Assembly: GCA_001918745.1 (NCBI GenBank)
Contig: MNGN01000021.1
Span: 1 to 37,540 of the forward strand
Origin: Crenarchaeota archaeon 13_1_40CM_3_52_17
Lineage (GTDB): Archaea; Thermoproteota; Bathyarchaeia; 40CM-2-53-6
Reading direction: 5' to 3'
DNA: 37,540 nucleotides
In this document: in pieces, positions 12,132 to 32,445 of the stretch
How the letters are laid out: every line of letters starts with the position of its first letter
Position numbering within the stretch: position 1 is the stretch's first letter
Made by a program: the position numbers and the translations under genes
The notes under the pieces: generated by a model
Databases searched by the model: none
What the model saw: only the letters and a program-made list of their open reading frames with translations
What the model was told of the DNA's origin: nothing

Positions 12132-12325
12132 ACCAAGCTGGTTTCTATGCAGTTCTCCGGTAGCAGTCACCGCTTCTCTTTCGTGTTTCTCTATCCGTCC
12201 GACAACTGAACAATGACCTCCGTAGTCCTTGGAAAGCTCTGCTTTCTGCTGAGATTGTTCCGCAGCGCTTCGGTATGCGCAGGTATCTAGTTTGACACAC
12301 AGAAGCGAACTTTGGGAATATCCCC

Positions 12326-12342: not shown

Positions 12343-12377
12343 CTCTAGCCAGCCAGGGGAGTCCGAAATCTCAGGAA

Positions 12378-13451: not shown

Positions 13452-13463
13452 GATGGGTCGCTG

Positions 13464-13946
13464 TTACTTTGCTTGTAGAACGAGCAGTAGAGCTGTGACG
13501 AGCGCGTAGATCGCCAGAGCCTCTGCCAGTATCAGCGTGATAACTGCTCTTGAGAATATATCCGGTTTCTCCGCCGTTGCGGCGGCTAGAGCGCTCCCAG
13601 ACGTCCCTATTCCAAATCCAGCGCCGAGGGCGGCTGCACCCATTGTTAGTCCGCCGGCGAAGATTCTGACTGAGCCAGCGAGGGTAAGCGTGTCGGTGAT
13701 GTGGAAGACCGAGAGAAGACCAACTACGAGGCCGTATATTGCGAGGGCTTCGGCGAGGATCGTAGCGATGAAGGTCTTGAACATGACCTCAGGCCGTTCG
13801 ACCCCTGCACCGGCAATAGCCGGCCCGGAGATTCCTATTCCAATTCCGGCACCAATGGCGGAGAGGAGGACGCTTAGTCCGCCGCCTAGTCCGGCCCAGA
13901 ATGTGGGGCACAGAGTAACAGACGTTAGGGTAGCGCAGTCAACCAC
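13464..13946 (-). CDS. atpK: A/V-type ATPase membrane ring subunit K (four-helix form)
   Basis: This is the proteolipid of the rotor ring, two fused helical hairpins of about 80 residues each. Both hairpins have a glycine-rich first helix (IGAGIGIGIS; LGAGFGIGTS) and an LAEALAIY motif with the ion-binding glutamate (E66 and E142), so both halves keep the proton site. No Na+-type extra ligand pattern is obvious. The frame is open to 14030, which would overlap the essential end of subunit I by 80 bases. I choose the GTG at 13946, 4 bases after the subunit I stop, which gives 160 residues. Many archaea have a single-hairpin K, so the doubled form is notable. Confidence 0.85.
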   Translation of the reverse strand: MVDCATLTSVTLCPTFWAGLGGGLSVLLSAIGAGIGIGISGPAIAGAGVERPEVMFKTFIATILAEALAIYGLVVGLLSVFHITDTLTLAGSVRIFAGGLTMGAAALGAGFGIGTSGSALAAATAEKPDIFSRAVITLILAEALAIYALVTALLLVLQAK

Positions 13947-13950
13947 TTGG

Positions 13951-15936
13951 TTACACAGTCCAACCAGTAGGCTCTCGGTAAGGCGCGAATGACAGTCCCG
14001 ATCCTTCATAAAACTTGCTAAACCATTCAACCCAGTGAAGCCTCAGAGTTTGCACGAAAACGATCAAACCCTCTAGAATCATTACCAAGAGATTTCCGGC
14101 TACGGCGCCCACTATTCCGAAGGAAGTGAAGAAGGCGAATTTTATTGCAAAGTCCGCTAGGTTGAGCGCCCAGATTCGAAGATAGGACAGCGTATTGCTT
14201 CCTGCGCTGATGAACACTTCGAAGAAGTGGAGAGGTCCCTCCTTCACCGCCATTATACCCATCGGTATGAACAACAGTACGAGCAGTGCAGGGTTTTGCA
14301 GGAGCACTCCGAACTTGTAGCCTGAGATGACGACCTGTGCTGCGAGATAGATGAAGGTGATGTAGAACCACGCCCAAGAAATCGGTCCGTAGAATGCGTG
14401 CTTGATCTCGTGATTCCGTACTTTATTGTATGTGCTGATTACTAGGCCCGAGAGGTAGTGTCCTACTCCGAACAAGAGTATCACAGACATATAGATGAGA
14501 AGGTGGGAAATATCCGGGGTGGCCGCGAAGGCTCCCTCGTTCGGGTTGAAGAAGGGTCGAAGGCCGAAGACCGCTTGGGACTCAAAACCGAAAAAGTCAC
14601 CGAAGAGAAACCCGAAAATTGTTATGCCAATGCCTAGCATAACTATGAGTTCCGCGCCGTTAACGAACAATTGTCCGATCTCGAAGATCTTGGCTTTTCT
14701 TCTCTTCAGCCACAAGAGAAAGAGGCCTAGAGCCAGGAAGAGTGGACCCTCACCGAAGTCTCCGAACATCAATCCGTAGATCAGCGGAAAGGTGAGAATC
14801 ATGAAAACCAAGGGATTTGTTTCGTTATAGGAGGGGATGCCAAAATTGTCGATCACGGACTGCAACGGCGTGCTCCAACCAGGGACTCTAACGAGCGTCG
14901 GTGGAGTCTGATGCTCCTCAGCTTCAAGGGCATTTTCTAGCGATCTGCCGTGAGGGACCTTGCGCGTGTCTTGAGTGTTCTCTATGTGAACAGAAACGAG
15001 TCCGTTGCAGGCCTTCGAAGCTCCTTCTGTCAGTGTCTGGACACTATCCTCGGCGACCCATCCTCGCAGCATGTAAGTCGACTCTGTAGTAGACGAGTTT
15101 GAGATGGCTCTGGATCGGGCTTCCAGAATCTCTGTGAGATACTCTAGAGTCTTGAGCCTCGGTCCGTACTCTTTTGTGAGGAGTTCACGCTGGTGGTCAA
15201 GCTTTCTCGCCACGTCCTCGATCTCCACGAGTCGGCTATCAGTGAATTTCTTAGCTTCCTTGGGGTCTGACGGAAGTTCTGCCCAAGGCTCTTCTACTTT
15301 TGCACCTAGTGCTGTGGCCGCTTGTTTTGCATCGTCTTCGAAGGCTCGGGGAAAAATGGCCAAGAAAGTTTGAGTTCTCTCTGCACTATGGGTGATGACG
15401 AAGATCAGATTTCCGTATGTCAATTCATCCAAGTCTCTCTGAATCGAAACGGTTGACTCTCTTGCACATTCTCCAGCGAGAGTGACGAGGAATCCGCTGC
15501 TTCCAATAGTACCGAGCGGCATTCCTACGGCTTCTAATCCTGAAAGGAAACGTGAGAGTTCCGAAGTTCTCTCCTTGTCAGCTAGTAGTTTGCCTTGCGA
15601 TTCCTCTAGTTGGCGGACCGACCCTTCGAGTTTTGAGGTTTCTTGGTCGAGGAAGAGGGCGAGCTCATCGATGTTGTGAGTCGGAGCTTCAATTTTCTCA
15701 GGTTGGACCTCAACCTGTTCAAGAGCTGCGGCAAGCGCGGAGATGCGGTTCCTGATCGTCGCGGATTTCGACAGCAGGCTTGTAGCTTCAAATGGCATTG
15801 CGCCCGGCGGGAGCTGTTCGTCCTCAATCGTCATGAGGTGAATCATCTGTTCTCTTCCAGCGTAGGAGAGGAGGTGGGGCAGCTCGTCTTTTGCGATTAT
15901 GATGCTGACCTGATGCATCGTCTCTGGTCTTAGCAC
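13951..15936 (-). CDS. atpI: A/V-type ATPase subunit I (stator, subunit a)
   Basis: This 661-residue subunit has a cytoplasmic half of about 320 residues with two coiled coils and an alpha/beta domain, then a membrane half of about eight helices. It anchors the peripheral stalks and forms the proton half-channels. The essential arginine is in SYLRIWALNLADFAIKF, matching the family's SYLRLWAL-LAH. The FGDFGEG and GDFFG loops typical of the membrane half are present. The start is GTG at 15936, 11 bases after subunit E; an ATG seven codons in (15918) is possible. A shorter protein at 9425-10375 repeats only its cytoplasmic architecture. Confidence 0.95.
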   Translation of the reverse strand: MLRPETMHQVSIIIAKDELPHLLSYAGREQMIHLMTIEDEQLPPGAMPFEATSLLSKSATIRNRISALAAALEQVEVQPEKIEAPTHNIDELALFLDQETSKLEGSVRQLEESQGKLLADKERTSELSRFLSGLEAVGMPLGTIGSSGFLVTLAGECARESTVSIQRDLDELTYGNLIFVITHSAERTQTFLAIFPRAFEDDAKQAATALGAKVEEPWAELPSDPKEAKKFTDSRLVEIEDVARKLDHQRELLTKEYGPRLKTLEYLTEILEARSRAISNSSTTESTYMLRGWVAEDSVQTLTEGASKACNGLVSVHIENTQDTRKVPHGRSLENALEAEEHQTPPTLVRVPGWSTPLQSVIDNFGIPSYNETNPLVFMILTFPLIYGLMFGDFGEGPLFLALGLFLLWLKRRKAKIFEIGQLFVNGAELIVMLGIGITIFGFLFGDFFGFESQAVFGLRPFFNPNEGAFAATPDISHLLIYMSVILLFGVGHYLSGLVISTYNKVRNHEIKHAFYGPISWAWFYITFIYLAAQVVISGYKFGVLLQNPALLVLLFIPMGIMAVKEGPLHFFEVFISAGSNTLSYLRIWALNLADFAIKFAFFTSFGIVGAVAGNLLVMILEGLIVFVQTLRLHWVEWFSKFYEGSGLSFAPYREPTGWTV

Positions 15937-15947
15937 GAGATGGAGAC

Positions 15948-16553
15948 CTACTCACCAAATATGTTTGAAGAGATTGTCGTTAGGAGCTGGTTGTCCAGTC
16001 TTTCGATGCGAGCCTTGAATGAATTGTTGAAGCTCATCTTTCCCTCGGGGTCACTTGCAATTACGCCTCCTAGCTCGTCGATCGCTATCTCAACAGCGAG
16101 GAATTTTGTCCCCTTGGGCAACACTTGTCCCAGAGATTGGAGACTTTTCTTCTCCGTATTCCGAAAGCCAACTTTCACTACTGCGTTGTCTGTTCCGACC
16201 GCCTCAACCGCTTCTAGCGCGAGACGTTTCAATGTCGACTCGAACTGGTCTGTTCTAGCGATGTCCGAGAGACGCTGTTCGACCGATTTGAGAACACTTT
16301 GAACGATCTTGTTCTTCTCTTCAAGGATCCTCAGTCGATTCGCCCTTATTCTGGAGCTTAGGATGCTCCTTCTGATGCTCTCGGCCTCCAAACTGGCTCT
16401 TGATAGAATATCGTTCGCTTCTCGTTGCGCTTGGGCTCGAGACTCTTCTAGAATCTGCTTGGACTTTTCTTCTCCCTGCTCGACGATACCAGCAGCTTTT
16501 AGTCTTGCGTCTGACAGAATCCGATTATGAAGCTTTTCCAGAGACTCAGCCAT
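15948..16553 (-). CDS. atpE: A/V-type ATPase subunit E (peripheral stalk)
   Basis: This 201-residue subunit has a long N-terminal helix rich in Ala, Glu, Arg and Lys (about 1-100) and a compact C-terminal alpha/beta domain. It pairs with subunit H as the stator stalk. The helix contains the usual heptad pattern and the C-terminal part carries LGGVIASDPEGKMSFNNSF, the family's GG---------N-T/SF-hairpin region. The ATG start is 3 bases after the subunit H stop and the gene precedes subunit I. In the common archaeal order E follows K, so its place between H and I is a small rearrangement. Confidence 0.93.
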   Translation of the reverse strand: MAESLEKLHNRILSDARLKAAGIVEQGEEKSKQILEESRAQAQREANDILSRASLEAESIRRSILSSRIRANRLRILEEKNKIVQSVLKSVEQRLSDIARTDQFESTLKRLALEAVEAVGTDNAVVKVGFRNTEKKSLQSLGQVLPKGTKFLAVEIAIDELGGVIASDPEGKMSFNNSFKARIERLDNQLLTTISSNIFGE

Positions 16554-16556
16554 TTT

Positions 16557-16874
16557 TCAACCGCCTAGAACCAATTCAACGGCTTTCTTCGCGGCAACGT
16601 CTTTCCTGTCCTCGAAGAGCTTCTTGTAATTTTCAAGTAGAGAGTCGGTTTCCACGTCTGAGCTTCTCGCGTCAGCCTCCGCCTTCTCCCGCGTTATTCG
16701 AAGCATCTGGACTTTCCGCTGTTCTGCTTCAGATGTTGAGGTTTGCCGAACCTTTTGGGCTTCTTCTGATGCACGAGCCAGAATCTCTTCAGCCCTTAAC
16801 TGAGCTTCTTCGACGATCCGTTTCGCTTGACCCTCAGTTTCCACAATCTTCCTTACAGCTTCGATTCCAGACAA
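16557..16874 (-). CDS. atpH: A/V-type ATPase subunit H (peripheral stalk)
   Basis: This 105-residue, nearly all-helical protein is rich in Glu, Ala, Lys and Arg with a continuous coiled-coil pattern from about residue 8 to 95, as in subunit H/G. It forms the heterodimeric stator stalk with subunit E, which follows directly. The start is TTG at 16874. It is the first gene of the H-E-I-K-C operon, and a TATA box lies about 65 bases upstream. Sequence alone is weak because coiled coils are low in information, but position and length make the call firm. Confidence 0.85.
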   Translation of the reverse strand: MSGIEAVRKIVETEGQAKRIVEEAQLRAEEILARASEEAQKVRQTSTSEAEQRKVQMLRITREKAEADARSSDVETDSLLENYKKLFEDRKDVAAKKAVELVLGG

Positions 16875-17008: not shown

Positions 17009-17584
17009 GTGCCCGTAAAGATCATTCACCCTGATCACGTGGAAATCGTTGGTCTCGGACGCGTTCTCCTGACCGCTCCACATGCAACGAGCGCTGACGC
17101 AGATCTTCACACCGGACAAATTGTTGAGGAAGCAGCGCTGACTTCTAGGTCGTTTGCCGTCATCGGCAAAGTCGACAAAGAATTCCTGGACTGGAACCGA
17201 ATTCAGTCCGCGCAATCGGAGTTCAGAAAGGGCATCGAAGGATTCGTGTCGGAAGATGGAATTAGGTATATTCTTGACATCCACGGAAAAAAAGAGCCAG
17301 GCGTGGACATTGGGACGGGGCAGACGTGTTCTGAACCGACGACCGAGCTAGTAAGGTCACGGTTGGCCAAAGACTTCACGGTAAAGGTGAACAGCGAGCA
17401 CAAGGGAGACGAACCTGGAAGCGTAATCACAAGCAACAACCGAACAGATGCGAAAGGCAATTTCGCTGTAGAGACTATCCAAATTCGCTTCGGTCATGAA
17501 GAGAGACAGCTTCTGAGAGAGAAGGTGATTATGGACATCTCAGAGATAGCGGACATACTCAACGCGCGACTAGAGCCCTCGTGA
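17009..17584 (+). CDS. N-formylglutamate amidohydrolase-like protein
   Basis: This 191-residue protein shows the metal-site outline of the N-formylglutamate amidohydrolase family: APHA with H25 near the N-terminus and DIHG with D90 and H92. A late VETIQIR segment (E154) stands where the family has E-x-R or E-I-R. It is shorter than typical members of about 250-270 residues, so it may be a compact archaeal version with a different amide or peptide substrate. The start is GTG with GGTGA just upstream. Its 3' end overlaps the convergent nuoN gene by 15 bases. Nothing nearby suggests histidine degradation, where the classic enzyme acts. Confidence 0.65.
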   Translation: MPVKIIHPDHVEIVGLGRVLLTAPHATSADADLHTGQIVEEAALTSRSFAVIGKVDKEFLDWNRIQSAQSEFRKGIEGFVSEDGIRYILDIHGKKEPGVDIGTGQTCSEPTTELVRSRLAKDFTVKVNSEHKGDEPGSVITSNNRTDAKGNFAVETIQIRFGHEERQLLREKVIMDISEIADILNARLEPS

Positions 17585-19039
17585 ACCGACTAGTGCAGCG
17601 GCAGCACTTTGAGCTAGGCGAATCCAAGGGTCGGGGTAAATTCCAATGGCGAAGATCAGAATCGTGGCAGCCCAAAGGACCGCCATATAGACGCGCGGTT
17701 CAGCAATCCTAGACTGATCTTGTGGTTCGTCAAAATACATCCTCTTGATCAACCAACCATAGTAGCTCATGCTGAAGCCGCTGTTAATCAGAGCCGCCAA
17801 CGCTAGATAGCCACCCCAAGTGTAAGGCGAATAGATCGACCCTGTGAACAGCATGACTTTGCTGAAGAACCCATTGAGGGGAGGCACACCGGCAAGGCCG
17901 AGAAAAATTACTGCAATACTCAAAGATGTTTGCGGCATTCTTCGAGATAACCCATTGAAAGAATCGAGATCCGTAATCGACAGCTTGGTTGCAACTGCCG
18001 CCGCAGCGACGAATGCAGCTGTCTTCAGGATTGCATAATTCAGAACGTGAAAGAGTCCGCCGGCCAAACCCAATGGCACATTGGTCGTCGTGAATGGAGT
18101 GGCGAGCGCCATTAGGATGTAACCTGCCTGGGCAATGCTGGAATAGGCGAGGAGTCTTGTGAAGCTCTTTTGCATCAGAGCTGCAACGTTTCCGACACTC
18201 ATTGTCACTACGGCTACGATCGCAAAGGTCGAGTAGAAATCCACGTTGAAAGCTGAGATCCCTACGATGAATACTCGAAAGGCCGCCGCGAATGCTGCCA
18301 TCTTCGCACCGGCGGCCAAAAACGCACCAATCGTCACTGGAGCGCCTTCGAAGGCATCGGGTATCCACATGTGAAACGGAACGACTGCCATCTTCACCCC
18401 GAATCCAACGATAAACAGGACAATCGCGAGGACCCCGAATGGACGAACATCTGGTCCCGCGGTCGATAGAGAGCTTGCAATGGCTGTGAGCCCAGTGGAG
18501 CCAGTGATTCCGAAGACCAGGGAAATGGCGTAAACAAGGAGTGCGGAGGAAAGTGCTGAGAGGACGAAGAATTTCATAGCTGCTTCGTTGGAATTCGGGT
18601 CCTTCTTCCTGAACGCGGTCAGGGCATACGTGGGAATGCTCATCAGCTCCCAACCAACGTAGAGAAGTATAAGATCCATTGAGGCTGCTAGGACAATCAT
18701 TCCGAGGGTCGAAAGGAGCAGAAGGCCGAAGAACGGTCCCTTGTTGGGATCCTCTCGCATGTACTGAAGCGAGGCTATGGTCACGAAGATCGCGACGATC
18801 AGCAGGACTCCTGAGAAGAACAGGGTAAATAGATCAACTTGGAATCCCCCGAAAGATACTGGAGCAGAGCTTGTGAACCCAAGCCATACCGTGGATACCA
18901 GGGCGATGGCCAAACCTAGTATACAGACAAATGGTGCGAAACCGAGCTTCGATTTTTTGAAACGGAGAAAGCCGGCAGGCGTGGCGAGTAGTCCAAACAC
19001 AGCAAGGCTGAGAAAAGGGGTCAGCGAAAGCAGAGCCAA
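17570..19039 (-). CDS. nuoN: Complex I subunit NuoN
   Basis: This 489-residue antiporter-like subunit of the complex I membrane arm has about 14 helices. The pumping residues are visible: the TM5 glutamate in YVGWELMSIPTYAL, a TM7 lysine in GFGVKMAVVPFHMW, and the TM12 lysine in LNGFFSKVMLF, the NuoN/L-type residue where NuoM has Glu. DLILLYVGWELM before and PVTIGAFLAAGAKM after are standard landmarks. The start is TTG 6 bases after the first NuoM-type gene. It is the last gene of the complex I operon. Confidence 0.93.
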   Translation of the reverse strand: MALLSLTPFLSLAVFGLLATPAGFLRFKKSKLGFAPFVCILGLAIALVSTVWLGFTSSAPVSFGGFQVDLFTLFFSGVLLIVAIFVTIASLQYMREDPNKGPFFGLLLLSTLGMIVLAASMDLILLYVGWELMSIPTYALTAFRKKDPNSNEAAMKFFVLSALSSALLVYAISLVFGITGSTGLTAIASSLSTAGPDVRPFGVLAIVLFIVGFGVKMAVVPFHMWIPDAFEGAPVTIGAFLAAGAKMAAFAAAFRVFIVGISAFNVDFYSTFAIVAVVTMSVGNVAALMQKSFTRLLAYSSIAQAGYILMALATPFTTTNVPLGLAGGLFHVLNYAILKTAAFVAAAAVATKLSITDLDSFNGLSRRMPQTSLSIAVIFLGLAGVPPLNGFFSKVMLFTGSIYSPYTWGGYLALAALINSGFSMSYYGWLIKRMYFDEPQDQSRIAEPRVYMAVLWAATILIFAIGIYPDPWIRLAQSAAAALVGSRGL

Positions 19040-19045: not shown

Positions 19046-20536
19046 TCATCTTGCTCCAAGACCAACTATGGTTCCAACCCATTTCTCCACTGTCGGAGCT
19101 ATCACACTCCCTAGTATCGGGGGCGGATACACGCCAAAGATCAACAATGGCACAAGAAAGGCGACAAGAATCAGGATCGAATGAAGATGCAGCTCGTTCT
19201 TGGGGCCGACCGGGGGTGTCATCGCCACGCGCCGAAGCATCCAGAGGAAGTATCCGACAGTCAGGGCTGGAGCGACTATGGCGATTGCGAAGAGATAGCT
19301 CACGCTGAGAGCACCCTGGATCACGAGGTATTCGCTGATGAAGTTGGCAAACCCGGGAACCGCCATAGCGGCCATCGAGGCCAAGAAGAGAAGTGAAACC
19401 GTCTGAGGCATCTTCCCTCTTAGTCCTTTGAGTTCGTCGATATTCCTGGTGCCTGTGTGTTCATGGATGTATCCAGACATGAGGAAGAGCATTCCGATAG
19501 CGAGTCCATGGCTGAACATCTGAAAGACTGCTCCTGAGACTCCTGCAACTGTTGCAGTGAATGCTCCGAGGAGAACGTAGCCCATGTGATTGACGCTGGT
19601 TAGGGCAATCATTCTCTTGATGTCCTTGGCGACCAGTGCGACTGAGGCACCGTAGATCATTGTGATGAGGCCGATGGTGGTAAAGTAGGGCCAGAGAACA
19701 CTCACCGCCTTAGGGAAGAGTAGCAAGTTGTACCTGATCAATCCATAGCCTCCCATCTTGAGAAGCAGGCCGGCAAGGAGAACGCTTACCGGTGCAGGGG
19801 CCTCCACGTGAGCATCAGGTAACCATGTGTGAAGCGGAAATATGGGAAGCTTCACCGCGAACCCGACGAAGGTCGTGACAGCTACTGCGAGCTGGAGAGG
19901 CAGTGCAAGATTCGGGATCCTGACTGCGAGGACATCATAATCAAACGAGGGACCTCCAGGATAAGCCGAGGTTCCAGTCCACGCGTATAGAGCAAGAAAA
20001 CCGAACAACATCACCGCGCTACCGGAATATGTGAAAATGAGGAATTTCAGGGAAGCATATCTTCGTCGTGGTCCGCCCCAGATTCCGATGAAGAAAAACA
20101 TTGGAATGAGAACGATCTCCCAGAAGAGATAGAATAGAATCAGGTTGAGCGAGGTGAAGACGCCGATGATTCCGGTTTCGAAGATGAGAAAGAGAGCATA
20201 ATATTCGGCATGTCTGAATGTTATCTGATCCCAAGATCCCGCGGCCGACAGGAGGCTTAGGAATGTGGCTATCATCAGGAGCGGGAGGCTTATCCCGTCA
20301 ATCCCGACTTTGTAGTTGAGGCCGAAAGACCCAGCCCATGGAGCGCTCTCAGAGAGCTGGAATCCTGCTTGGCCATATTGGAAAACTACTAGAATTAGGA
20401 TTGAGATAGCGAAGACGATAGCGGTCGTCCCCACTCCCAGAATCTTTGCCATTTTCGGGTTCTTCCTGCCGAGCAGAAATGTCGGTGCTGCGAGGACCGC
20501 GGGGAGAAATATTGCGATTGATAGGAGTCCGATCAC
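19046..20536 (-). CDS. nuoM: Complex I subunit NuoM (copy next to nuoN)
   Basis: This 496-residue antiporter-like subunit keeps all standard NuoM residues: E140 in FYLFWEIVLIP (TM5), K229 in FAVKLPIFPLHTW (TM7), K260 in LLLKMGGYG (TM8), the His in MFSHGLAIGM, and a TM12 glutamate in FANFISEYLV. HVEAPAPVS matches the usual HVEAPTPVS. The start is GTG, directly after the nuoL stop. This copy is the more canonical of the two NuoM-type proteins in the operon. The gene sits between nuoL and nuoN. Confidence 0.93.
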   Translation of the reverse strand: MIGLLSIAIFLPAVLAAPTFLLGRKNPKMAKILGVGTTAIVFAISILILVVFQYGQAGFQLSESAPWAGSFGLNYKVGIDGISLPLLMIATFLSLLSAAGSWDQITFRHAEYYALFLIFETGIIGVFTSLNLILFYLFWEIVLIPMFFFIGIWGGPRRRYASLKFLIFTYSGSAVMLFGFLALYAWTGTSAYPGGPSFDYDVLAVRIPNLALPLQLAVAVTTFVGFAVKLPIFPLHTWLPDAHVEAPAPVSVLLAGLLLKMGGYGLIRYNLLLFPKAVSVLWPYFTTIGLITMIYGASVALVAKDIKRMIALTSVNHMGYVLLGAFTATVAGVSGAVFQMFSHGLAIGMLFLMSGYIHEHTGTRNIDELKGLRGKMPQTVSLLFLASMAAMAVPGFANFISEYLVIQGALSVSYLFAIAIVAPALTVGYFLWMLRRVAMTPPVGPKNELHLHSILILVAFLVPLLIFGVYPPPILGSVIAPTVEKWVGTIVGLGAR

Positions 20537-22627
20537 TTAGCTGGCCCCGACGACGAACAACATGTAAGCGAGCAGGAGGATTATGCCAATTGCGAACCCG
20601 ATGACGTATTGCTCCGTCACCCCAGACTGAAGCCTTCGGAGAAGGTTGCTGAGCCTGGACCCGTACGATGCTACCTCGTTTGCTGCTCGGTCTACAACCT
20701 GAGTGTCGAGTTGATCACTCGCCCGTGAATAGTCCATTATGTCTCGACCAATTGTGTTGTTTAGCCTGTTCCAGATCCCCTGTTCAACGTAAGTGTAGAG
20801 TCCTTGGCTGGCCGCGAGTAAGCCTGAAACGAAGACTTTGTAGTAGATGGCATCGAGATACCAGCGTTTGTATAGGAATCGCTGGATCGGGTTCATGTCA
20901 ATTTTGACAACATAGTTTTTCCGGAAGTAAAGCAGGTAGGCAATTCCACCCCCAACAATCGCGGCAGCTGTGCTCACAGACAGCAAGAGGAGGTCAGTAA
21001 GGCCCGAAGCTGAGCTGACTACAGCAGGAAACTTGTAGACTGTTGAGCTGAAGGTACTCGCAACATATGTGGTCAGAGGACCGCTGTAGAGTGGATAAGC
21101 GAGTCCCAAGCCTAGACTGCCAAGAGCGAGAAGCAGGTAAGGAATGAGCATCGTAAGGCCAGCTTCGTGTGGATGCTTTCCACCTTCCATGAGGTCCTCA
21201 ACATGCTTGCTGGGCTTTCCGGCAAGTGTGATGCCCAACATTCGAACGGTGTAGAAACCGGTAATGAATGCTGTGAGGAGAGCTAGTCCGTAGAGGATGT
21301 ATTGTCCTCCGAGGAAGCTCAAAGAAAGTATCGCGTCCTTCGTCCAGAACCCGCTGAAGGGTGGAATGCCCATCAAGGAAAGCCCTGCCAACAGCATTGA
21401 AGCGGAGGTAAGCTTCATGGCCTTCGCCAGTCCTCCCATTTCGTCCATGAAACGAGATTCTGCAACGTGTAACACCCATCCCGCGGCTAGGAAAAGTGAG
21501 GCCTTGAATACAGCGTGGCTGAGAAGATGAAAGAGTCCAGCAGAATAGCCTGCGAGAAAGTTAGCGCTGAGCCCCGCGATTCCGAGGGCCAGCATCATGT
21601 AGCCGATCTGAGAGACGGTCGAATAGGCTAGTACCTTCTTTATTTCGCGAGCGACTGCGGCCTGACTGGCAGCTAAGAGTGCTGTAAACGCCCCTATCCA
21701 GGCGATGACTCCGAAGAATTGGTACACTTGGTTGAACTGAGAGAGGGCGATGAAGAATACGGGGCCCATCCTCCCGGTAAGGAAAACTCCGGCCTTTACC
21801 ATTGTTGCGGCGTGTATTAACGCGGAAACTGAGGCTGGACCGGTCATTGCATCCGGGAGCCATTCCTGCAAGGGAAACTGCGCCGACTTCCCGATCGGTC
21901 CTCCGAAGAACAGTAGAGCGGTAGGAAGTAGAAGACCTAGGCGAGCCAGATTTGCAGCCCAGCTCCCTGAGCTACCTAGTTGCGCTACGAGTTGGTTGTA
22001 GTTGAAGGTCCGCGCGAAGGCGAATATCAGAAAGATTGCTATCAGCAAAGCGATGTCTCCGATTCTTGTCATCACGAACGCTTTCATCCCCGATTTCGTC
22101 GGTGAGTATTCTTCCGAAACGCCTAGGGCTGTGTCGCCGGGGCTACCTACCCAGTACTTCGGCTCGTCGCGGTAATAGTGACCAATCAGTGCATAGGAGC
22201 AAAGGCCCACCCCTTCCCAACCGAAGAACATCATCAGGAGGTTGTCAGCGAGGACGAGCAGTAGCATGTTTCCGATGAAGAGGTTCATGAAGAACCAATA
22301 TCGTGTCAGGCCGAATTCGCCTTTCATGTATCCAATGCTGTAGATCATGATGAGAAGGCTGATCCATGCGACGATGTTCGCCATGAAGAGGCTGAGGGGA
22401 TCGACTAGAACTCCGGCAGTGATGTTGAGAGATGGAATCCACGCGACGGTGTAATCTCCAGCCGCGACCGTCAGCGCTGTTACCGTCGCTAACACCGCTG
22501 CTACAAAGGTAAAACCAACTGCTGCTATATCACGAACTCTAGAATGAATCTTGGCGAATAATGGGGTGAGAAGCGCGCCAACAAGGGGCGTCACCCAGAT
22601 GAGCCATGCGAGAAGAGAGCTAGCCAA
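20537..22627 (-). CDS. nuoL: Complex I subunit NuoL with long C-terminal lateral segment
   Basis: This 696-residue distal pump subunit begins with the NuoL core: FFGWEGVGLCSYALIGHY, the EWLPDAMTGPASVSALIHAATM stretch, HLLSHAVFKASLF, and a TM12 lysine in FSGFWTKDAIL. After the last core helices the protein has the lateral-helix region. YLDAIYYKVFV at about 590 is followed by a polar, helix-forming stretch up to RRLQSG at 664, then the terminal membrane helix. About 70 residues separate these two landmarks, longer than I recall for ordinary NuoL. A longer strut would be needed to span an additional NuoM subunit, which this operon encodes. The start is TTG 4 bases after the upstream NuoM-type gene. 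Confidence 0.93.
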   Translation of the reverse strand: MASSLLAWLIWVTPLVGALLTPLFAKIHSRVRDIAAVGFTFVAAVLATVTALTVAAGDYTVAWIPSLNITAGVLVDPLSLFMANIVAWISLLIMIYSIGYMKGEFGLTRYWFFMNLFIGNMLLLVLADNLLMMFFGWEGVGLCSYALIGHYYRDEPKYWVGSPGDTALGVSEEYSPTKSGMKAFVMTRIGDIALLIAIFLIFAFARTFNYNQLVAQLGSSGSWAANLARLGLLLPTALLFFGGPIGKSAQFPLQEWLPDAMTGPASVSALIHAATMVKAGVFLTGRMGPVFFIALSQFNQVYQFFGVIAWIGAFTALLAASQAAVAREIKKVLAYSTVSQIGYMMLALGIAGLSANFLAGYSAGLFHLLSHAVFKASLFLAAGWVLHVAESRFMDEMGGLAKAMKLTSASMLLAGLSLMGIPPFSGFWTKDAILSLSFLGGQYILYGLALLTAFITGFYTVRMLGITLAGKPSKHVEDLMEGGKHPHEAGLTMLIPYLLLALGSLGLGLAYPLYSGPLTTYVASTFSSTVYKFPAVVSSASGLTDLLLLSVSTAAAIVGGGIAYLLYFRKNYVVKIDMNPIQRFLYKRWYLDAIYYKVFVSGLLAASQGLYTYVEQGIWNRLNNTIGRDIMDYSRASDQLDTQVVDRAANEVASYGSRLSNLLRRLQSGVTEQYVIGFAIGIILLLAYMLFVVGAS

Positions 22628-22631
22628 GTGT

Positions 22632-24137
22632 CTATGATCCCACTATTGCTCTTGCAGCGGAAAGGAGTCGGCCGAGTATGGGTTCAGGATAGATACCCAG
22701 GATTATGGTAACGATGCTAAGGGTGATGAGAGGAAGAGTGATTGTCCAGGGCGCTTCCTTGACATTAGAGGTGTCCGAGTTTGGCGCTCCGAAGAAGATC
22801 TTTTTCATTGCCATCAGAGAGTAACCCGCAGTAAGGGCAGTGGCAACAATTCCCAGTGCCGCGATTACAAGGCGATATTCGGAGGCAGTATCCGTCGCTC
22901 TTACGAATCCACCTTGGAACAGGAAGAATTCGGATAGGAAGCCGTTTGTGGAGGGCAGGCCTGCGAGGGTCAGAGAGCCGATGAAGGCAGCGGTGGCCGT
23001 GATTGGCATTTTGCTGGCGAGTCCTCCGAGCTTGCTTAGGCTTCTCTCGCCGCGGACCTGAAGCATAACGGCGCCAACGACGATGAAGAGTATTCCTTTG
23101 GCAGTGCCATTGCTCACGTACTGAAACATTGAGCCAGAAACCCCAAACGAGTTGAATGCGGCGAGCCCGAACAGAATGTAGCCCATCTGGCTGATACTCG
23201 AATATGCAAGGAGTCTCTTGATGTCGTCTTGCACCAATGCCATCGCGCTACCGTAGATCATCGTAATGAGAGCCCACCCTGCAAAGAAAGCAGAGAAAGT
23301 GAGAAAGGCCTGCGGAAAGATCGTCATGACTATTCGAACGGTCGCGTACCCTCCTATCCCCGTCATGGCAGCAGCCAGAATAGTACTGATTGGAGTAGGC
23401 GCCTCGGCATAGGCTGATGGAAGCCAAACGTGAAGTCCGAACTGACCTATTTTGACAAAGAACCCGAAGCACATCGTTCCAACGATTCCAAGGCGGAGGG
23501 TTGTCGAAATGAGGCCTGGATTCACAGCGAGATTGCTGATGACGAGATCCATGTCGGTAGCGCCGGTCAGATAGGCGGTAACTAGTATTCCGACGAGGAG
23601 CACTAGCGCTCCTACATGGGTCCAGATGAAGTAAGTGAGCGAAATTCTCTCTTTCTCGCCGTATCCCCATTCAGCGATGAGGAAGAAGGAGGGAACAAGC
23701 ATGATCTCAAAGAAGAGATAGAACTCGATCAGGTTTGTGGCCAGAACAGTCCCGATCATTCCCAGGGAGTAGAGCGCGAACAGACTGTAGTAGAGGCCGT
23801 AGCGTCCTGGATCGTTGCCTATCCGTTGATGCATATAGGGGACGGAGAAGAGAGAGACCAGCGCCGTTAGGAGGCCTATGATGAAGAGAATGGGAAGGCT
23901 CAGATTGTCAACTCGGAAGCCAAAGTTTCCAATTGGAGACCATGAATATAGTTCCTGGTAGGTCCCTTGAGGGGACCCCGAACCTTGAAGCGCAGCGTAT
24001 AGGACCGTAACGAGCGGGATTAGAAGGAAGATGAAAGAAACGAATCCGGTTTTCTCTGTTAGCTTTTTAGAGAGAGCGTAGAGGATTGGAATCGCTAGCA
24101 GCGGCACGAGTATTGCGCCAATTAGAAGCAGTGTCAT
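22632..24137 (-). CDS. nuoM: Second NuoM-type complex I subunit, divergent at TM8
   Basis: This 501-residue antiporter-like subunit is NuoM-type by its TM12 glutamate (NGFLSEFFLF). It has E144 in FYLFFEIMLVP and K229 in FGFFVKIGQFGLHVW. It differs from the other copy in three places: the TM8 lysine is replaced by Gly (AMTGIGGYA, position 260), the usual SHG is SNG, and HVEAP is YAEAP. So the proton path may be altered or the missing charges supplied by a neighbour. It lies between nuoK and nuoL, where thaumarchaeal operons carry their single NuoM, so which copy is the extra one is unclear. The start is ATG at 24137. Confidence 0.9.
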   Translation of the reverse strand: MTLLLIGAILVPLLAIPILYALSKKLTEKTGFVSFIFLLIPLVTVLYAALQGSGSPQGTYQELYSWSPIGNFGFRVDNLSLPILFIIGLLTALVSLFSVPYMHQRIGNDPGRYGLYYSLFALYSLGMIGTVLATNLIEFYLFFEIMLVPSFFLIAEWGYGEKERISLTYFIWTHVGALVLLVGILVTAYLTGATDMDLVISNLAVNPGLISTTLRLGIVGTMCFGFFVKIGQFGLHVWLPSAYAEAPTPISTILAAAMTGIGGYATVRIVMTIFPQAFLTFSAFFAGWALITMIYGSAMALVQDDIKRLLAYSSISQMGYILFGLAAFNSFGVSGSMFQYVSNGTAKGILFIVVGAVMLQVRGERSLSKLGGLASKMPITATAAFIGSLTLAGLPSTNGFLSEFFLFQGGFVRATDTASEYRLVIAALGIVATALTAGYSLMAMKKIFFGAPNSDTSNVKEAPWTITLPLITLSIVTIILGIYPEPILGRLLSAARAIVGS

Positions 24138-24143: not shown

Positions 24144-24452
24144 CTATCCTTTCAGCTTTGATAGTTTCGACAGGTCTATGTCGGTGTTCAGTCTGGAGAC
24201 GAGGATGATTATCGAGAGCCCGACAGCCGCTTCCATCGCGGCGAGTGCGATGGTGAACAATACGAGGACTTGCCCGGTGACTATGGGAGGATTGCGCAGG
24301 CGGGCGAAGGCGATTATGTTCAGGTTGGCCGCGTTGTAGATCAACTCAACGGAGAAGAGAATGCGAATAGCGTTCCGTTTCGTCGTGAGACCATAGATTC
24401 CGATGCCGAGCAGGATTGTTGATACGGCGAAGAAACTCGACAGAGGCTCCAA
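24144..24452 (-). CDS. nuoK: Complex I subunit NuoK
   Basis: This 102-residue, three-helix subunit forms part of the link between the quinone site and the pump subunits. The two buried glutamates are present: E36 in FSVELIYNAANLN and E74 in AAMEAAVGL. The start is TTG at 24452, 3 bases after the nuoJ stop. Length and helix positions are normal. Confidence 0.92.
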   Translation of the reverse strand: MEPLSSFFAVSTILLGIGIYGLTTKRNAIRILFSVELIYNAANLNIIAFARLRNPPIVTGQVLVLFTIALAAMEAAVGLSIIILVSRLNTDIDLSKLSKLKG

Positions 24453-24455
24453 TTC

Positions 24456-24950
24456 CTACTCCCCCCTATCCGTCTTCGACAGAGCCAACGCACCGATTAC
24501 AGCAGCAGCCATGACTAGAGACATGAATTCTAGTGGAACGCCGTAACTCTTCAGGAGAGAAGTACTAAACAAAGAGAGAGCGCATCCGGATCCGCACGAG
24601 TCTGGTCCCGGAAAGGCCGTTGCGTTAGCCAGCGCCCCGGTCATCCCCAGCAGCAACGAAACGAGCATGGCAGCGAGAAGTGATACGCGTTTCAGCCCCA
24701 GCGGGGTTTCACCCTTCTTCGGCCCAACGAGCATGACAGTGAAAAGGATCAGAACTACGACTGCGCCGATGTACACTGCAATCTGAAACCAGCCAACATA
24801 AGCTGCGTCCAGAAGAAAGAACAACCCAGCCACTCCGAGGAAGGCGATTCCAAGTGCCGCCGCTCCGTAAACGAGATCTCTTGCTTCGATCGCGAGGATC
24901 GCAGCGCCGATCGTTACTGCCGCGAATGCTAGAAACAAGAGGTCTGTCAT
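24456..24950 (-). CDS. nuoJ: Complex I subunit NuoJ
   Basis: This 164-residue, five-helix subunit begins MTDLLFLAFAAVTIGAAIL. It has the family's long glycine-containing helix 3 (YVGWFQIAVYIGAVVVLILF), where NuoJ has a pi-bulge and the GA-V-VL-LF pattern. The frame is open well upstream into nuoH, but that part is not hydrophobic. The ATG at 24950, 8 bases after the nuoH stop, gives the normal start. The C-terminal end EFMSLVMAAAVIGALAL is typical. In Thaumarchaeota-type operons nuoI normally stands before nuoJ; it is absent here. Confidence 0.92.
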   Translation of the reverse strand: MTDLLFLAFAAVTIGAAILAIEARDLVYGAAALGIAFLGVAGLFFLLDAAYVGWFQIAVYIGAVVVLILFTVMLVGPKKGETPLGLKRVSLLAAMLVSLLLGMTGALANATAFPGPDSCGSGCALSLFSTSLLKSYGVPLEFMSLVMAAAVIGALALSKTDRGE

Positions 24951-24958: not shown

Positions 24959-25966
24959 TCAGAGCGTTGGGAGTCCTACGACCAGAAGGTAGGTTATGCC
25001 TATGTTGAGTATCGCAAGCGTGAGAAGAGTGGTCCAACCTGCTCTGAGAAGTTGGTCGAGGCGGACTCGCGGAAATGTGGATCTCAGCAGCATTATCAGC
25101 ACGATGATTATCAGAGTTTTGAGCAGCATCCAGAAGAGAGGAGGAAGAAAACCTGGTCCAAGGAAGCCTCCTAGATACATTACGCTGAAAAGGGCCGAGA
25201 AGGCGTAAAGCTTCACAAAACCGGGTCCTTGCGCTGCAAGGAAGAGGACGCCCGTGTATTCTGCCTGCCAACCCATCATGATCTCGGATTCGGCCTCTGG
25301 CAAGTCGAACGGAAGACGCTCCATCTCCGCGACGCTAGTGACCAAGAAGATGAATGCCCCAAGAGCTTGAGGAATGATGAACCAACCTGTGGATTGAGCG
25401 GCTACAATCTGAGCCAGGTTCAAGGTTCCCGCCATCATGATTACCCCGAGGGCGGACAGCCAGAGCGGAATCTCATACGCTGTCTGCTGAAAGAGCGCTC
25501 GCAGCCCTCCAATGAAGGGGAACTTGCTGTTAGCACTCCATCCCGCAAGCAAGATGAGAGTGGGAGACAAAGTTATGATAGCGAGAAAGGCGGGGAGTCC
25601 AACTTCGATATTCGCGATTTGAAGCCCCGGTGCAAACGGTATGAGTCCAACAAGGGCCGCGCCGAGGACGAGGCCTGTCGTTGGAGCCATTATGAAAAAG
25701 AAGGCATCAGAATTCTCTGGAACGAAGAGTTCCTTGAACGCAAGCTTGATCAGGTCCGCAAACATCTGCAGAATTCCTCCAGCCGGGCTCGCATAGAGCG
25801 GGCCGACACGGAGCTGGACCCTAGCCGTCAATTTGCGCTCTAACCAGCCGAGAAGCGCTCCTATGATTGCGATTGAGGTGAGGCCGGGGAAGAGTACTAT
25901 TTGTAGAAAGAGCGGGCTGGTAACCATGTCAACTATTGGTTGCAACGGCCCAAGCACCGACGCCAA
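24959..25966 (-). CDS. nuoH: Complex I subunit NuoH
   Basis: This 335-residue subunit lies under the quinone chamber and joins the hydrophilic and membrane arms. It carries the conserved ERKLTARVQLRVGP near residue 43, SVAEMERLPFDLPEAESE in the central loop and FPRVRLDQLLRAGW near the end. All acidic residues that line the chamber entrance in that loop are present. The TTG start follows GGAG by about 12 bases and the nuoA stop by 15. In the usual archaeal order nuoB, C and D would separate nuoA from nuoH; here they are adjacent. Confidence 0.93.
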   Translation of the reverse strand: MASVLGPLQPIVDMVTSPLFLQIVLFPGLTSIAIIGALLGWLERKLTARVQLRVGPLYASPAGGILQMFADLIKLAFKELFVPENSDAFFFIMAPTTGLVLGAALVGLIPFAPGLQIANIEVGLPAFLAIITLSPTLILLAGWSANSKFPFIGGLRALFQQTAYEIPLWLSALGVIMMAGTLNLAQIVAAQSTGWFIIPQALGAFIFLVTSVAEMERLPFDLPEAESEIMMGWQAEYTGVLFLAAQGPGFVKLYAFSALFSVMYLGGFLGPGFLPPLFWMLLKTLIIIVLIMLLRSTFPRVRLDQLLRAGWTTLLTLAILNIGITYLLVVGLPTL

Positions 25967-25981: not shown

Positions 25982-26353
25982 CTACCAGTTCTCCCGGTGG
26001 TTAGCGAGGTGAAGCGCATAGCCAAGAGGGATCAGGAGGACAACTATGAAGACAAGAACCGGAACTGACCCCGGCGCACCAAGAGCCCTCAGGTTCAAAC
26101 CCCATGCGAAAAGGAACATGGCGATGACATCATAGACGACAAACATGAGAAGGTAGGGATAGTACTGGATGATGAATCGAGTCCTACCAGGGCCGACAGC
26201 AATCTGGCCTGATTCGAATGGCTTCTTCTTTTCAGGAGTAGGTCTAGGGTCCTTTGGGGTGATGAAGAGCCTGAGAACGATGACGAGTGCGACGGTCGAG
26301 ACGAAGAGAAACCCGATGTAGGCTCCGATCTCCGGGATTCCCTGCGCGACCAT
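25982..26353 (-). CDS. nuoA: Complex I subunit NuoA
   Basis: This 123-residue, three-helix subunit is first in the operon. The loop that normally reads PYECG reads PFESG (46-49), so the switch cysteine is absent. The helix 2 motif usually written FDVE reads YDVI, keeping D75 but losing the glutamate. The overall spacing, RF--QYYPYLL---YDV, still identifies NuoA. The ATG at 26353 sits behind a strong TATA box. No peripheral-arm genes are seen between it and nuoH. Confidence 0.88.
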   Translation of the reverse strand: MVAQGIPEIGAYIGFLFVSTVALVIVLRLFITPKDPRPTPEKKKPFESGQIAVGPGRTRFIIQYYPYLLMFVVYDVIAMFLFAWGLNLRALGAPGSVPVLVFIVVLLIPLGYALHLANHRENW

Positions 26354-27462: not shown

Positions 27463-27954
27463 ATGCCTAAAACAACCTTTATACCAAAAGCCAGACAAGC
27501 GCGCGTAATTCAAGTGAAAAAAATGGAAACAACACCAAAACCGCCCGAAGCACCGAAGTCTAAGAGCAATCCGTGGAAGCTCATCGCGATCGTCGTAGTG
27601 ATACTAATCGTGGTCGGCGTAGCAGCGTACATTCTGACCTTACCGCCACCCTCTACAGCTGCGAACGTCCACATACAAGATGATGCCGCGTGCAGCCCTA
27701 ACGATGCTAGCTGCCTGTTCAGCCCAGCGTCCTACAACGCAACAGTGAACGGAAGTGGCGTGGTTTGGAAGAACGATGGCACGATCAACCATACCGTAGC
27801 TACCAACGCAACTCAGAACGGTAGCCTGCCAACATTTACTTCGTCCAATATCGGGCACGGCCAGACATACTCCTTCTCCTTTACCGCTGCGGGCACATAC
27901 CACTACTACTGCACAATTCATCCGTGGATGAAAGGCATCGTCATCGCAAAGTAG
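27463..27954 (+). CDS. Membrane-anchored blue copper protein (plastocyanin-like)
   Basis: This 163-residue protein has one N-terminal helix (about 39-60) and an extracellular type-1 copper domain. Ligands are H110 in TINHTVATN and C150-x2-H153-x2-M156 in YYCTIHPWM, the plastocyanin/amicyanin pattern. It probably carries single electrons between the Rieske/b complex and the CuA oxidase, whose genes lie 1 kb downstream on the other strand. Start choice is open: ATG 27463 gives a basic extension. A TATA-like TTTATACC at 27478-27485 suggests instead a nearly leaderless GTG at 27514 or ATG at 27523, leaving the helix close to the N-terminus. Confidence 0.87.
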   Translation: MPKTTFIPKARQARVIQVKKMETTPKPPEAPKSKSNPWKLIAIVVVILIVVGVAAYILTLPPPSTAANVHIQDDAACSPNDASCLFSPASYNATVNGSGVVWKNDGTINHTVATNATQNGSLPTFTSSNIGHGQTYSFSFTAAGTYHYYCTIHPWMKGIVIAK

Positions 27955-29327: not shown

Positions 29328-31748
29328 CTAGATGAGATAAAACAAGGGGAAGAGAAAGACCCAGACAATGTCGACAAAGTGCCAGTAGAGGCCGAAGTGT
29401 TCTATTGCTTGATGATCGCCTTTGAGGTAGCGGCCTTTGAGAGTGTTGACTAGCAGGTACAGAGTCATGAGCATGCCCGCGAAAACGTGAACCCCGTGTG
29501 TTCCGGTTGTGATGAAGTAGCTAGTTGCCGGGAGGCCGTAGGCTACAGAGAAAACCCCGTGTGATCCGAGATAGACCCACTCCGTCGCTTTGATGTAAAG
29601 AAACGAAATCCCCAGCCCAAACGTGGCTATCAAGCTCACAATCAACCCGTTACGTGATCCTACTTTTGCCGAGACGAGAGCCATTATTGCCGTGAGACTA
29701 CTGGTGAGCAGAACAAGAGTCATTGCAAACCCGTTTCGGATATCGAAGAGTGACCCGACTTCCGGCCAAATCGGGGAGTTAGTTCGAACGAAAAAGTATG
29801 CGCCAATGAGCACTCCGAAAAAGATTACTTCGGCACCCAAAAAGGTCCAGATTCCAAGCTTTACGTTCGGAACCTCTCGGAATGGCCAGCTCTCGACATG
29901 AGACTCTTCGTGCACCGAGAACTTCTCTCTGCTGTAACCATAGAGTACGATGACCCCAAGGATGGCACCGTCCAGTATCAACGGCCAGAACGGCTGGAAT
30001 GTCACTGGGGTGGTCGGACTGCTAGGTTGTCCTATCGTTAGGCCGAGGAAGAAGATGAACGCTGCGAACGCCACGACAATAGGCCACGGGCTTAAGCCTT
30101 CAAAGTGAGAGTGCAGATAGCCGTCTCCTATCTTCGAGCCATTGGGATACCCAGCGCCATGTGGTAGTCCCGCACTGGTCCCGAAGTGATACGTCCCATC
30201 TTCGGCAATGGATGGTATTTTGTCAAAGTCATGGGCTGGTGGTGGGGAAGGAAGGGACCATTCCAGGGTCCAACCGTCCCAAGGATTCGGGCCGGAAGGC
30301 GGTCCTCTTCTCTGGCTAAGGAAGATGTTTACGAAGAGAAGTACCTGGGCACCACCAAAGATGAAACCGCCGAAAGTGGCAAGGGAGTTCAGTGATCCCC
30401 ATCCCGTGTCGGGGGCGTATGTCTGTATTCTCCGGGGCATATCTAGCAAGAGAAACATCGGAAAGTAGAGTATGTTGAATCCGATGAAGGAAACGATAAA
30501 GTGGATCTTGGCGACGGTTTCATTGTACATTCTTCCGGTAAATTTCGGAAACCAATAATACAATCCAGCGATCAGCCCCATGATGCTTCCTCCAACCATG
30601 ATGTAGTGGAAGTGCGCGACGACGAAATACGTGCCTCTCAACGCATGATCAAGAGCCACAGACGCGAGGTATACTCCGGTGATACCACCAATCACGAATA
30701 GGGCAATGGCTCCAAGCGCAAAGAGTGCGGCTGCCTTGAGCTTTACCCTCGCTTTTGTCAGCGTCTCGATCATTGCGATTACCATCACGTCAAAAGGCAG
30801 CGAAACCGCGATTGTTGTTACTGTATACAACTTGGTTGATGTCAATCCGATTCCAGTCACAAACATGTGATGACCCCAAACAATGAAGCTGATGACCGCG
30901 GCAGCTATCATTGAACCAATGACATACTTGCTGCCATAGAGAGGCCTTCGACTGAATGTCGGAATAACATCCGCGATAAGGCCAATGGCCGGAAAGAGAA
31001 CGATGTACACTTCAGGATGCCCGAAGAACCAGAAGACATTGTCCCAAAGCAGCGCTCCACCTTGAAGCGACGAGAAATAGAAGGTTCCGAACGCCCGGTC
31101 AACATAGAGCAGGAGAACGGCTGCTAGGAAGGATGGAAACGCGTAGAGCATCATGAAAATCGTCACCAGAATCGCCCACGGGAAAACCGGCATATTTCTC
31201 AGCTTCATGCCGGGAGCCCGCATCTTGAACATGGTCACAAGAAAGTTCACTGAGCTCATTGTTATTGAGACCGTAATCAGGATGAGAGCAGCAGCTCCAA
31301 CGTTGAGCCCTATTGAAGGAGCAAATTGAAATGCGGTCTGGGGAGAATAGAGCGTCCAGCCGAGGTCCGGGGCACCGAAGATGAAACTCATTATGATGGC
31401 AACGCCGCTGAACAGGTAGAACCAGTAGCTCATCGCGTTGAGCCTTGGGAATGCAAGGTCCCGAGCTCCAATTTGGAGTGGAATGATGTAGTTCGCGAAG
31501 CCAAACGCGAATGGTGATAGGACCCAGAATATCATTAGAAGGCCATGGACTGTTACGAACTGATTGTACAGGGTCTCGGTCAGTACATGGTTGTCTGGAA
31601 CTGACAGCTGTGTGCGCATAGTGACAGCCAGTAGTCCAGCCGCGACGAAGAAGAAGAGGGCCGTAACAAGGTAGAGAATTCCAACCTCCTTATGGTTGGT
31701 TGTGAACAGCCACCTCCGGACTCTGGGTGGAAAAATGTCCTGGCTCAT
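29328..31748 (-). CDS. coxA: Heme-copper oxidase, fused subunits I and III
   Basis: This 806-residue protein joins a subunit I catalytic core (1-490), a linker with about two helices (to 610), and a subunit III domain (about 620-806, with LGAE and GTHGVHVFAG). Fused I+III is known from SoxM-type oxidases. Ligands: low-spin heme H68 and H381, CuB H244, H293 and H294, high-spin heme H379. GHPEVY supplies Tyr248 and the D-channel glutamate E246; D97, N86 and N104 complete the D-channel. The K-channel is not standard: where A1 oxidases have PTGIK, this reads PFDVM, so Thr is F319 and Lys is M322, with D320 and E328 nearby. The ATG at 31748, 4 bases after coxB, is preferred over the longer frame overlapping coxB. 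Confidence 0.95.
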   Translation of the reverse strand: MSQDIFPPRVRRWLFTTNHKEVGILYLVTALFFFVAAGLLAVTMRTQLSVPDNHVLTETLYNQFVTVHGLLMIFWVLSPFAFGFANYIIPLQIGARDLAFPRLNAMSYWFYLFSGVAIIMSFIFGAPDLGWTLYSPQTAFQFAPSIGLNVGAAALILITVSITMSSVNFLVTMFKMRAPGMKLRNMPVFPWAILVTIFMMLYAFPSFLAAVLLLYVDRAFGTFYFSSLQGGALLWDNVFWFFGHPEVYIVLFPAIGLIADVIPTFSRRPLYGSKYVIGSMIAAAVISFIVWGHHMFVTGIGLTSTKLYTVTTIAVSLPFDVMVIAMIETLTKARVKLKAAALFALGAIALFVIGGITGVYLASVALDHALRGTYFVVAHFHYIMVGGSIMGLIAGLYYWFPKFTGRMYNETVAKIHFIVSFIGFNILYFPMFLLLDMPRRIQTYAPDTGWGSLNSLATFGGFIFGGAQVLLFVNIFLSQRRGPPSGPNPWDGWTLEWSLPSPPPAHDFDKIPSIAEDGTYHFGTSAGLPHGAGYPNGSKIGDGYLHSHFEGLSPWPIVVAFAAFIFFLGLTIGQPSSPTTPVTFQPFWPLILDGAILGVIVLYGYSREKFSVHEESHVESWPFREVPNVKLGIWTFLGAEVIFFGVLIGAYFFVRTNSPIWPEVGSLFDIRNGFAMTLVLLTSSLTAIMALVSAKVGSRNGLIVSLIATFGLGISFLYIKATEWVYLGSHGVFSVAYGLPATSYFITTGTHGVHVFAGMLMTLYLLVNTLKGRYLKGDHQAIEHFGLYWHFVDIVWVFLFPLFYLI

Positions 31749-31752
31749 ATGG

Positions 31753-32445
31753 TCACTTTGCACTGCCGTACCAATTCTGGAAAGCTGTGACATTCATCAC
31801 GGCCAGAGTTGCAATCATTCCGACGTGTCCGGTCCCGCACAGCTCAAAGCATTGGATAGTGTAATTCCCGGGCGTGTAGGGGATGAACCAGATTGTGTTG
31901 GTTCTTCCATGAATGGCATCTGTTTTGATCTTGAATTGTATTATGCCGAAATCATGGAAAACATCGGCGCTGGTAACGTCGAGAACGACCGTCGTGTCAA
32001 CCGGCACCCTGAAGAAGTTGGTGTATGTGTGATTGTTCGGATACCTGAAAACCCAATAGAATTGGTGACCCGTGACGTCGAGTCGTGGACAACTTTGTCC
32101 CGTGGCCTGGGTCTGATTGTACGCGGCAATGCCATAACACCATGTAGCGTTCGGTGGAGTATTCGGGAAAAGCGTGTCCACCGCGGCAAATGATGTTATG
32201 ATCAGGACAGCTAGGAGGAATGTCGAGAGCGTTACAGTAATCAAAACGTTTCGACCATGTCCCCGTGCGGTAGGAATCCGTCCCAGCCGAGGCGTATCTT
32301 CAGGATCGCTTGAAGACTTCTTCGAGCGATACCTGATTATTAGGTATGCCATCAACGCGAAAACGATCACACCAACAACAATGGCGAGATCGGTGAAGAT
32401 CCCGTATAGATTGTCGAAAATTACTTGAGTATTGGAGACCGCCAT
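31753..32445 (-). CDS. coxB: Cytochrome c oxidase subunit II (CuA)
   Basis: This 230-residue subunit has two N-terminal membrane helices (about 17-38 and 67-88) and a cupredoxin domain outside. The CuA ligands are all present: H164 in ADVFHDF, C199, E201, C203, H207 and M210 in QCFELCGTGHVGM. The aromatic GHQFYWVFRY stretch (126-135), the electron entry patch, is present. It is first in the operon coxB-coxA-coxD-membrane protein, behind a TATA-like element. It is not fused to a cytochrome c, which agrees with a copper-protein donor. A second CuA protein is encoded at 4338-4928. Confidence 0.95.
   Translation of the reverse strand: MAVSNTQVIFDNLYGIFTDLAIVVGVIVFALMAYLIIRYRSKKSSSDPEDTPRLGRIPTARGHGRNVLITVTLSTFLLAVLIITSFAAVDTLFPNTPPNATWCYGIAAYNQTQATGQSCPRLDVTGHQFYWVFRYPNNHTYTNFFRVPVDTTVVLDVTSADVFHDFGIIQFKIKTDAIHGRTNTIWFIPYTPGNYTIQCFELCGTGHVGMIATLAVMNVTAFQNWYGSAK

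What the first reader, a model, noticed from the sequence alone, without database searches (positions are those of the whole stretch)
20537..24137. Complex I with two NuoM subunits and a lengthened NuoL lateral segment
The operon encodes M-L-M-N, two proteins with the NuoM-type TM12 glutamate. NuoL has about 70 residues between YLD (about 590) and RRLQSG (664), roughly 25 more than I recall for ordinary NuoL. A longer lateral helix is what a complex with one extra pump subunit would need. Complex I variants with a second NuoM have been described in some bacteria such as Nitrospira; an archaeal case would add a likely extra proton per turnover or a different redox span.
Basis: partly seen in the sequence, partly recalled or inferred. 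Interest (0 to 1): 0.72.

Follow-up and report, generated by a model that had tools for sequence, protein, structure and literature searches.

The report
Archaeal complex I with four pumps
A soil archaeon encodes a respiratory complex I with four instead of three proton-pump-like subunits and a side helix lengthened by about the amount needed to span the extra one; it is a real member of a type already described in bacteria and other archaea, and its relatives suggest that the helix grows by about 27 residues for each added pump.

Summary
On the minus strand the window encodes nuoA-H-J-K-M-L-M-N with gaps of 0-15 bases. Both Ms pass the curated NuoM model and carry the TM12 glutamate. NuoL has 75 residues between Y590 and R664, against 45 in E. 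coli and 49-50 in single-M archaeal relatives; the insert is 26 residues. No other antiporter-like gene was found in the 80%-complete genome. nuoB-C-D-I lie on a second contig beside an FrhB/FpoF-like gene; NuoF was not found. The Ms are not a recent duplication: M1 is the archaeal type, M2 the E. coli type. This is a '2M' complex I, a type reported for Nitrospira, marine Thaumarchaea and Angelarchaeales, so an archaeal case is not new; the host lineage is. Of 60 related complexes scored, all 22 with two or more Ms have a long lateral helix; the converse fails in five. Extra pumping remains inferred. Side finding: helix lengths cluster at ~50, 75-77, 102-104 and 131, and two lineages carry three M genes (one partly frameshifted). 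A helix acting as a modular ruler deserves more attention than the window's own complex.

The parts
25982..26353 (-). nuoA (123 aa)
   Evidence: NCBIfam NuoA models to E 1e-15, below their curated cut-offs; position next to nuoH
24959..25966 (-). nuoH (335 aa)
   Evidence: NF004741 317 bits, above cut-off 305
24456..24950 (-). nuoJ; the listed ORF is longer (to 25271), start placed at the ATG just after nuoH
   Evidence: Oxidored_q3 86 bits, above cut-off 33.2, matching only residues 124-264 of the long ORF
24144..24452 (-). nuoK (102 aa)
   Evidence: NF004320 88 bits, above cut-off 57
22632..24137 (-). nuoM1, archaeal-type NuoM (501 aa); TM12 Glu; Gly where E. coli has the TM8 Lys, as in most archaeal M1 proteins aligned
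   Evidence: TIGR01972 324 bits; residues; trees
20537..22627 (-). nuoL (696 aa) with lengthened lateral helix
   Evidence: TIGR01974 498 bits; alignments; AF2 model, mean pLDDT 76, HL as helices 590-637 and 645-666 but pLDDT below 50 over 626-681
20636..20860 (-). lateral helix HL, NuoL residues 590-664 (75 aa)
20702..20779 (-). 26-residue HL insert, NuoL residues 617-642; gap placement uncertain by a few residues
   Evidence: alignment with single-M order relatives
19046..20536 (-). nuoM2, E. coli-type NuoM (496 aa), TM12 Glu
   Evidence: TIGR01972 473 bits; residues; tree
17570..19039 (-). nuoN (489 aa), TM12 Lys
   Evidence: TIGR01770 328 bits, cut-off 332.6; residues

Best explanation
The locus encodes the membrane arm of a complex I with four antiporter-like subunits (N, two Ms, L). 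The usual 11-subunit core plus one M is completed by NuoB, C, D and I from another contig. Electrons probably enter from F420H2 through the FrhB/FpoF-like protein beside nuoI, or from ferredoxin, and pass to a membrane quinone; no NADH module was found. NuoL presumably sits at the far end, and its lateral helix, 26 residues longer (about 39 Angstrom if helical), reaches back past the extra M, so the complex likely moves one more proton per two electrons than an ordinary complex I, or uses the extra proton flow when run in reverse. Shown here: genes, family membership, residues, insert, conservation, association of insert with a second M. Inferred: assembly, subunit order, donor, direction and proton number.
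For: Both Ms lie in one tight cluster with L and N, and the MAG has no other antiporter-like gene. Curated family hits and key residues. 26-residue insert against single-M order relatives. 22 of 22 scored complexes with two or more Ms have HL of at least 75; 33 single-M ones have 45-53. In another family of the class, seven genomes with two adjacent Ms after L all have HL 77. NuoB, C, D, I on contig C9; FrhB/FpoF-like neighbour conserved in the genus.
Against: Five single-M complexes also have a long HL, so the insert alone does not prove a fourth pump. M1 lacks the TM8 lysine, so its pumping may differ. Peripheral and membrane genes are on separate contigs of an incomplete MAG. The phylogeny-aware sign test has too few independent pairs: 3-4 agree, none disagree, median p 0.25. 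By textbook potentials (own knowledge) F420H2 to menaquinone yields about 0.5 eV per two electrons, less than five protons against 150 mV need; ferredoxin or a higher-potential quinone would be required.
Confidence: 0.8

Rival explanations
1. M1 and M2 are alternative subunits: the cell builds two ordinary three-pump complexes, one with each M, and the long HL merely tolerates both.
For: M1 and M2 are old, distinct lineages; the AOA examined have an M1-type subunit alone.
Against: Single nuoL and nuoN in the MAG; none of the scored two-M complexes has a short HL. In the M1 tree the AOA nest beside a two-M complex and holding the two-M M1s together is rejected (p-AU 0.0027), which suggests that AOA lost M2 along with the HL segment, though the NuoL tree does not resolve loss from gain.
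Confidence: 0.1
2. The extra M assembles but adds no net proton; it lengthens the arm or tunes regulation, and stoichiometry stays at 4 H+ per 2 e-.
For: M1 lacks the TM8 Lys; the energy budget is tight for an F420H2 donor.
Against: TM5 Glu, TM7 Lys and TM12 Glu are kept in both Ms, and the TM8 change is also present where M1 is the only M, as in an AOA sequence aligned.
Confidence: 0.2
3. One M belongs to another machine such as an Mrp antiporter or a group 4 hydrogenase.
For: M1 also matches hydrogenase-4 and Mrp models below their cut-offs.
Against: The NuoM model scores best and passes its cut-off for both Ms; the MAG has no further antiporter-like gene; NuoD is Complex1_49kDa and its sequence shows no CxxC pairs.
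Confidence: 0.03

Closest known systems
2M complex I of Nitrospira and others (Chadwick et al. 2018, as cited in PMC9038741, PMC7300363, PMC9040806, PMC7419157; the paper itself is not held)
   Same: Second NuoM and an HL insert of about 26 residues
   Different: Archaeal host; no NuoF found here
2M complex I of heterotrophic marine Thaumarchaea, PMC7300363
   Same: Archaeal, extra M, no NuoEFG, aerobic organism
   Different: Different lineage; no F420-type gene beside nuoI is mentioned in the passages read
Complex I of Ca. Angelarchaeales, PMC9038741
   Same: Extra M, no EFG, complex I often near ATPase and cytochrome b genes, ferredoxin proposed as donor
   Different: Thermoplasmata. That paper credits AOA with a duplicated M; three AOA genomes searched here have only three antiporter-like subunits
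Complex_I_3 of Ca. Manganitrophaceae, PMC9040806
   Same: More than three pumps with a 26-residue HL insert
   Different: Bacterial, five pumps, uses MrpD-like subunits
Fpo/Fqo F420H2 dehydrogenase
   Same: FrhB-domain protein beside nuoI, no NADH module found
   Different: Two Ms; Fpo-specific NCBIfam models score below their cut-offs

Membership tests
2M complex I | Complex I membrane core A,H,J,K,L,M,N in one cluster | tested here: met
2M complex I | Second NuoM in the same cluster, both NuoM by curated model | tested here: met
   TIGR01972 324 and 473 bits, cut-off 263.8
2M complex I | HL insert of about 26 residues in NuoL | tested here: met
   26-residue gap; HL 75 against 45-50. Thermus was not aligned
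2M complex I | Core peripheral subunits B,C,D,I present | tested here: met
   B, C, D by Pfam; I by Fer4 motif, position and alignment within the genus
2M complex I | Four antiporter subunits in one particle and an extra proton | not testable with these tools
   needs structure and H+/e- measurement
Fpo/Fqo F420H2 dehydrogenase | FpoF-like F420 module | tested here: inconclusive
   FrhB_FdhB N and C domains, gene beside nuoI across the genus; F420 use and biosynthesis not tested
NADH:quinone oxidoreductase | NADH module NuoE,F,G | tested here: not met
   No Complex1_51K (NuoF) hit in the MAG, which is 80% complete; NuoE and NuoG not searched
Mrp antiporter or group 4 hydrogenase | Antiporter or hydrogenase partner genes around the second M | tested here: not met
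   The cluster is Nuo only; four antiporter-like genes in the MAG, all in it

The most novel reading that the evidence does not exclude
The NuoL lateral helix is a modular ruler that grows by about 27 residues per added antiporter subunit, so archaea hold complex I with three, four, five and perhaps six pumps; lineages with a long HL but a single M gene may place several copies of the same M in one complex. Support: HL of ~50, 75-77, 102-104 and 131, the 131 form with a visible internal repeat; three M genes beside HL 103 in G069, and beside HL 102 in a Borrarchaeota MAG whose first M is frameshifted; several HL 103-104 genomes with a single M gene, one of them a single contig.
Probability: 0.3. 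Interest if true: 0.8.

Novelty: new member of a known kind. Interest (0 to 1): 0.42.

Why it matters
It extends the four-pump complex I to an uncultured archaeal lineage with a cytochrome oxidase cluster, places an F420-type rather than NADH-type gene beside it, and indicates that the second M comes from a separate NuoM lineage rather than a fresh duplication. Its relatives offer natural variation in pump number, a way to test how complex I couples electron transfer to distant pumps and what sets its proton stoichiometry.

Tried and rejected
Chadwick 2018 is not held. Mrp or hydrogenase origin of one M: rejected. Recent tandem duplication of M: rejected by the tree. HL length as a strict count of M genes: rejected, five exceptions. 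An extra antiporter-like gene in G108 and one in G137 were checked as missing Ms: both score best, and weakly, against the NuoL model. Sign test: too few independent pairs. AF2 of single NuoL chains gives no confident HL path. One search failed to extract the extra loci because of a parsing slip and was redone. No paper on a terminal oxidase in soil Bathyarchaeia surfaced among the listed hits. Searches for HL or pump-number variants in archaea gave only the cases above.

Full report
Observation. The minus-strand cluster nuoA-H-J-K-M1-L-M2-N runs from 26353 down to 17570 with gaps of 0-15 bases (nuoJ start placed by eye after nuoH). Both Ms pass the curated NuoM model; N falls 5 bits short of its own. 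The MAG (1.78 Mb, 66 contigs, 80% complete) has only these four antiporter-like genes.

Anatomy. Against E. coli NuoM both Ms keep TM5 Glu, TM7 Lys and TM12 Glu; M1 has Gly where E. coli has the TM8 Lys, as do most other archaeal M1 proteins aligned, though not the Borrarchaeota ones. NuoL has 75 residues from Y590 to R664, E. coli 45, single-M relatives 49-50; two single-M members of the same order differ by one 26-residue gap. AF2 models HL as two helices followed by a TM helix, with pLDDT below 50 over residues 626-681, so its path is not established.

Peripheral arm. nuoB, C, D and I lie on contig C9 with an FrhB/FpoF-like gene directly after nuoI. That adjacency holds in ten of ten other same-genus loci fetched. 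NuoF was not found. NuoI of this MAG carries a 373-residue intein in its 4Fe-4S motif region; some relatives have it, some do not.

Taxon. 

Origin of the two Ms. In a 75-row tree M2 groups with E. coli NuoM (100*), archaeal M2s forming one clade (100*), while M1 lies in the archaeal group near AOA (quick method, with long-branch warnings). In a careful M1 tree the AOA sit with a two-M complex (L043), and holding the two-M M1s together is rejected, p-AU 0.0027 (the group was chosen after seeing the first tree, which weakens the p-value). Three AOA genomes searched have three antiporter-like subunits, and AOA NuoLs have HL 49-50. The simplest reading is that AOA lost M2 and the HL segment; the NuoL tree does not resolve it.

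HL and pump number. Among 60 complexes scored, 22 have two or more Ms, all with HL of at least 75; 33 have one M and HL 45-53; five have one M and HL 76-104 (G060, G077, G108, G126, L051). L089 and L103 were scored as single-M because their second hit sits near NuoN in the tree; that is a judgement. Independent pairs: 3-4 agree, none disagree, not significant. In another family of the class seven genomes have L-M-M and HL 77 (one of them, G055, is also among the 60), in a different gene order from the window where this was checked, and the Ms of that family examined have TM12 Lys. A further single-M complex there, G081, also has HL 77. G069 has N-L-M-M-M with HL 103; a Borrarchaeota MAG has M-M-L-M-N with HL 102, its first M broken by a frameshift; G084 and G101 have HL 131 with contigs that end inside M.

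Prior art. Extra-M complex I is reported in marine Thaumarchaea (PMC7300363) and Angelarchaeales (PMC9038741); the 26-residue insert is reported for Nitrospira 2M and Manganitrophaceae (PMC9040806). Chadwick 2018 could not be read. I found no mention of stepwise HL lengths in the passages and hits read, which is a limited search of an incomplete library.

Verdict. A genuine 2M complex I in a host lineage for which I found no report; function inferred.

Noticed in passing
L009 (G000:C9) 10717-12330: NuoI carries a 373-residue intein in its second 4Fe-4S motif region (LAGLIDADG_3 above cut-off; Hint and intein-splicing models below theirs); present in some genus members, absent in others.
   Followed up: partly
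L190 (G069) 4087-12462: N-L-M-M-M cluster, five antiporter-like subunits, HL 103; all three Ms have TM12 Lys instead of Glu.
   Followed up: partly
L151/L152 (Borrarchaeota MAG, same contig as L064): M-M-L-M-N with HL 102; the first M is split by a frameshift (166-aa and 361-aa frames overlap).
   Followed up: partly
L185 (G084) and L186 (G101): NuoL with HL of 131 residues holding a repeated ~27-residue unit; contigs end inside the following M.
   Followed up: partly
L184 (G108), L187 (G077), L188 (G126): HL of 103-104 with only one M gene found in the genome; G108 is a single contig.
   Followed up: partly
G037, G038, G039 (AOA; L072, L075, L097): Three antiporter-like Nuo subunits and HL 49-50, at odds with the statement in PMC9038741 that AOA have a duplicated M.
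   Followed up: partly
window 29328-31793: COX1 and COX3 domains fused in one 821-aa protein, with COX4_pro, COX2 and COX15/CtaA genes nearby.
   Followed up: no
window 2207-16874 and 27463-27954: Rieske and cytochrome b genes, a UbiA prenyltransferase, an H+-pyrophosphatase and V/A-type ATPase subunits share the contig with complex I, as does a plastocyanin-type protein.
   Followed up: no
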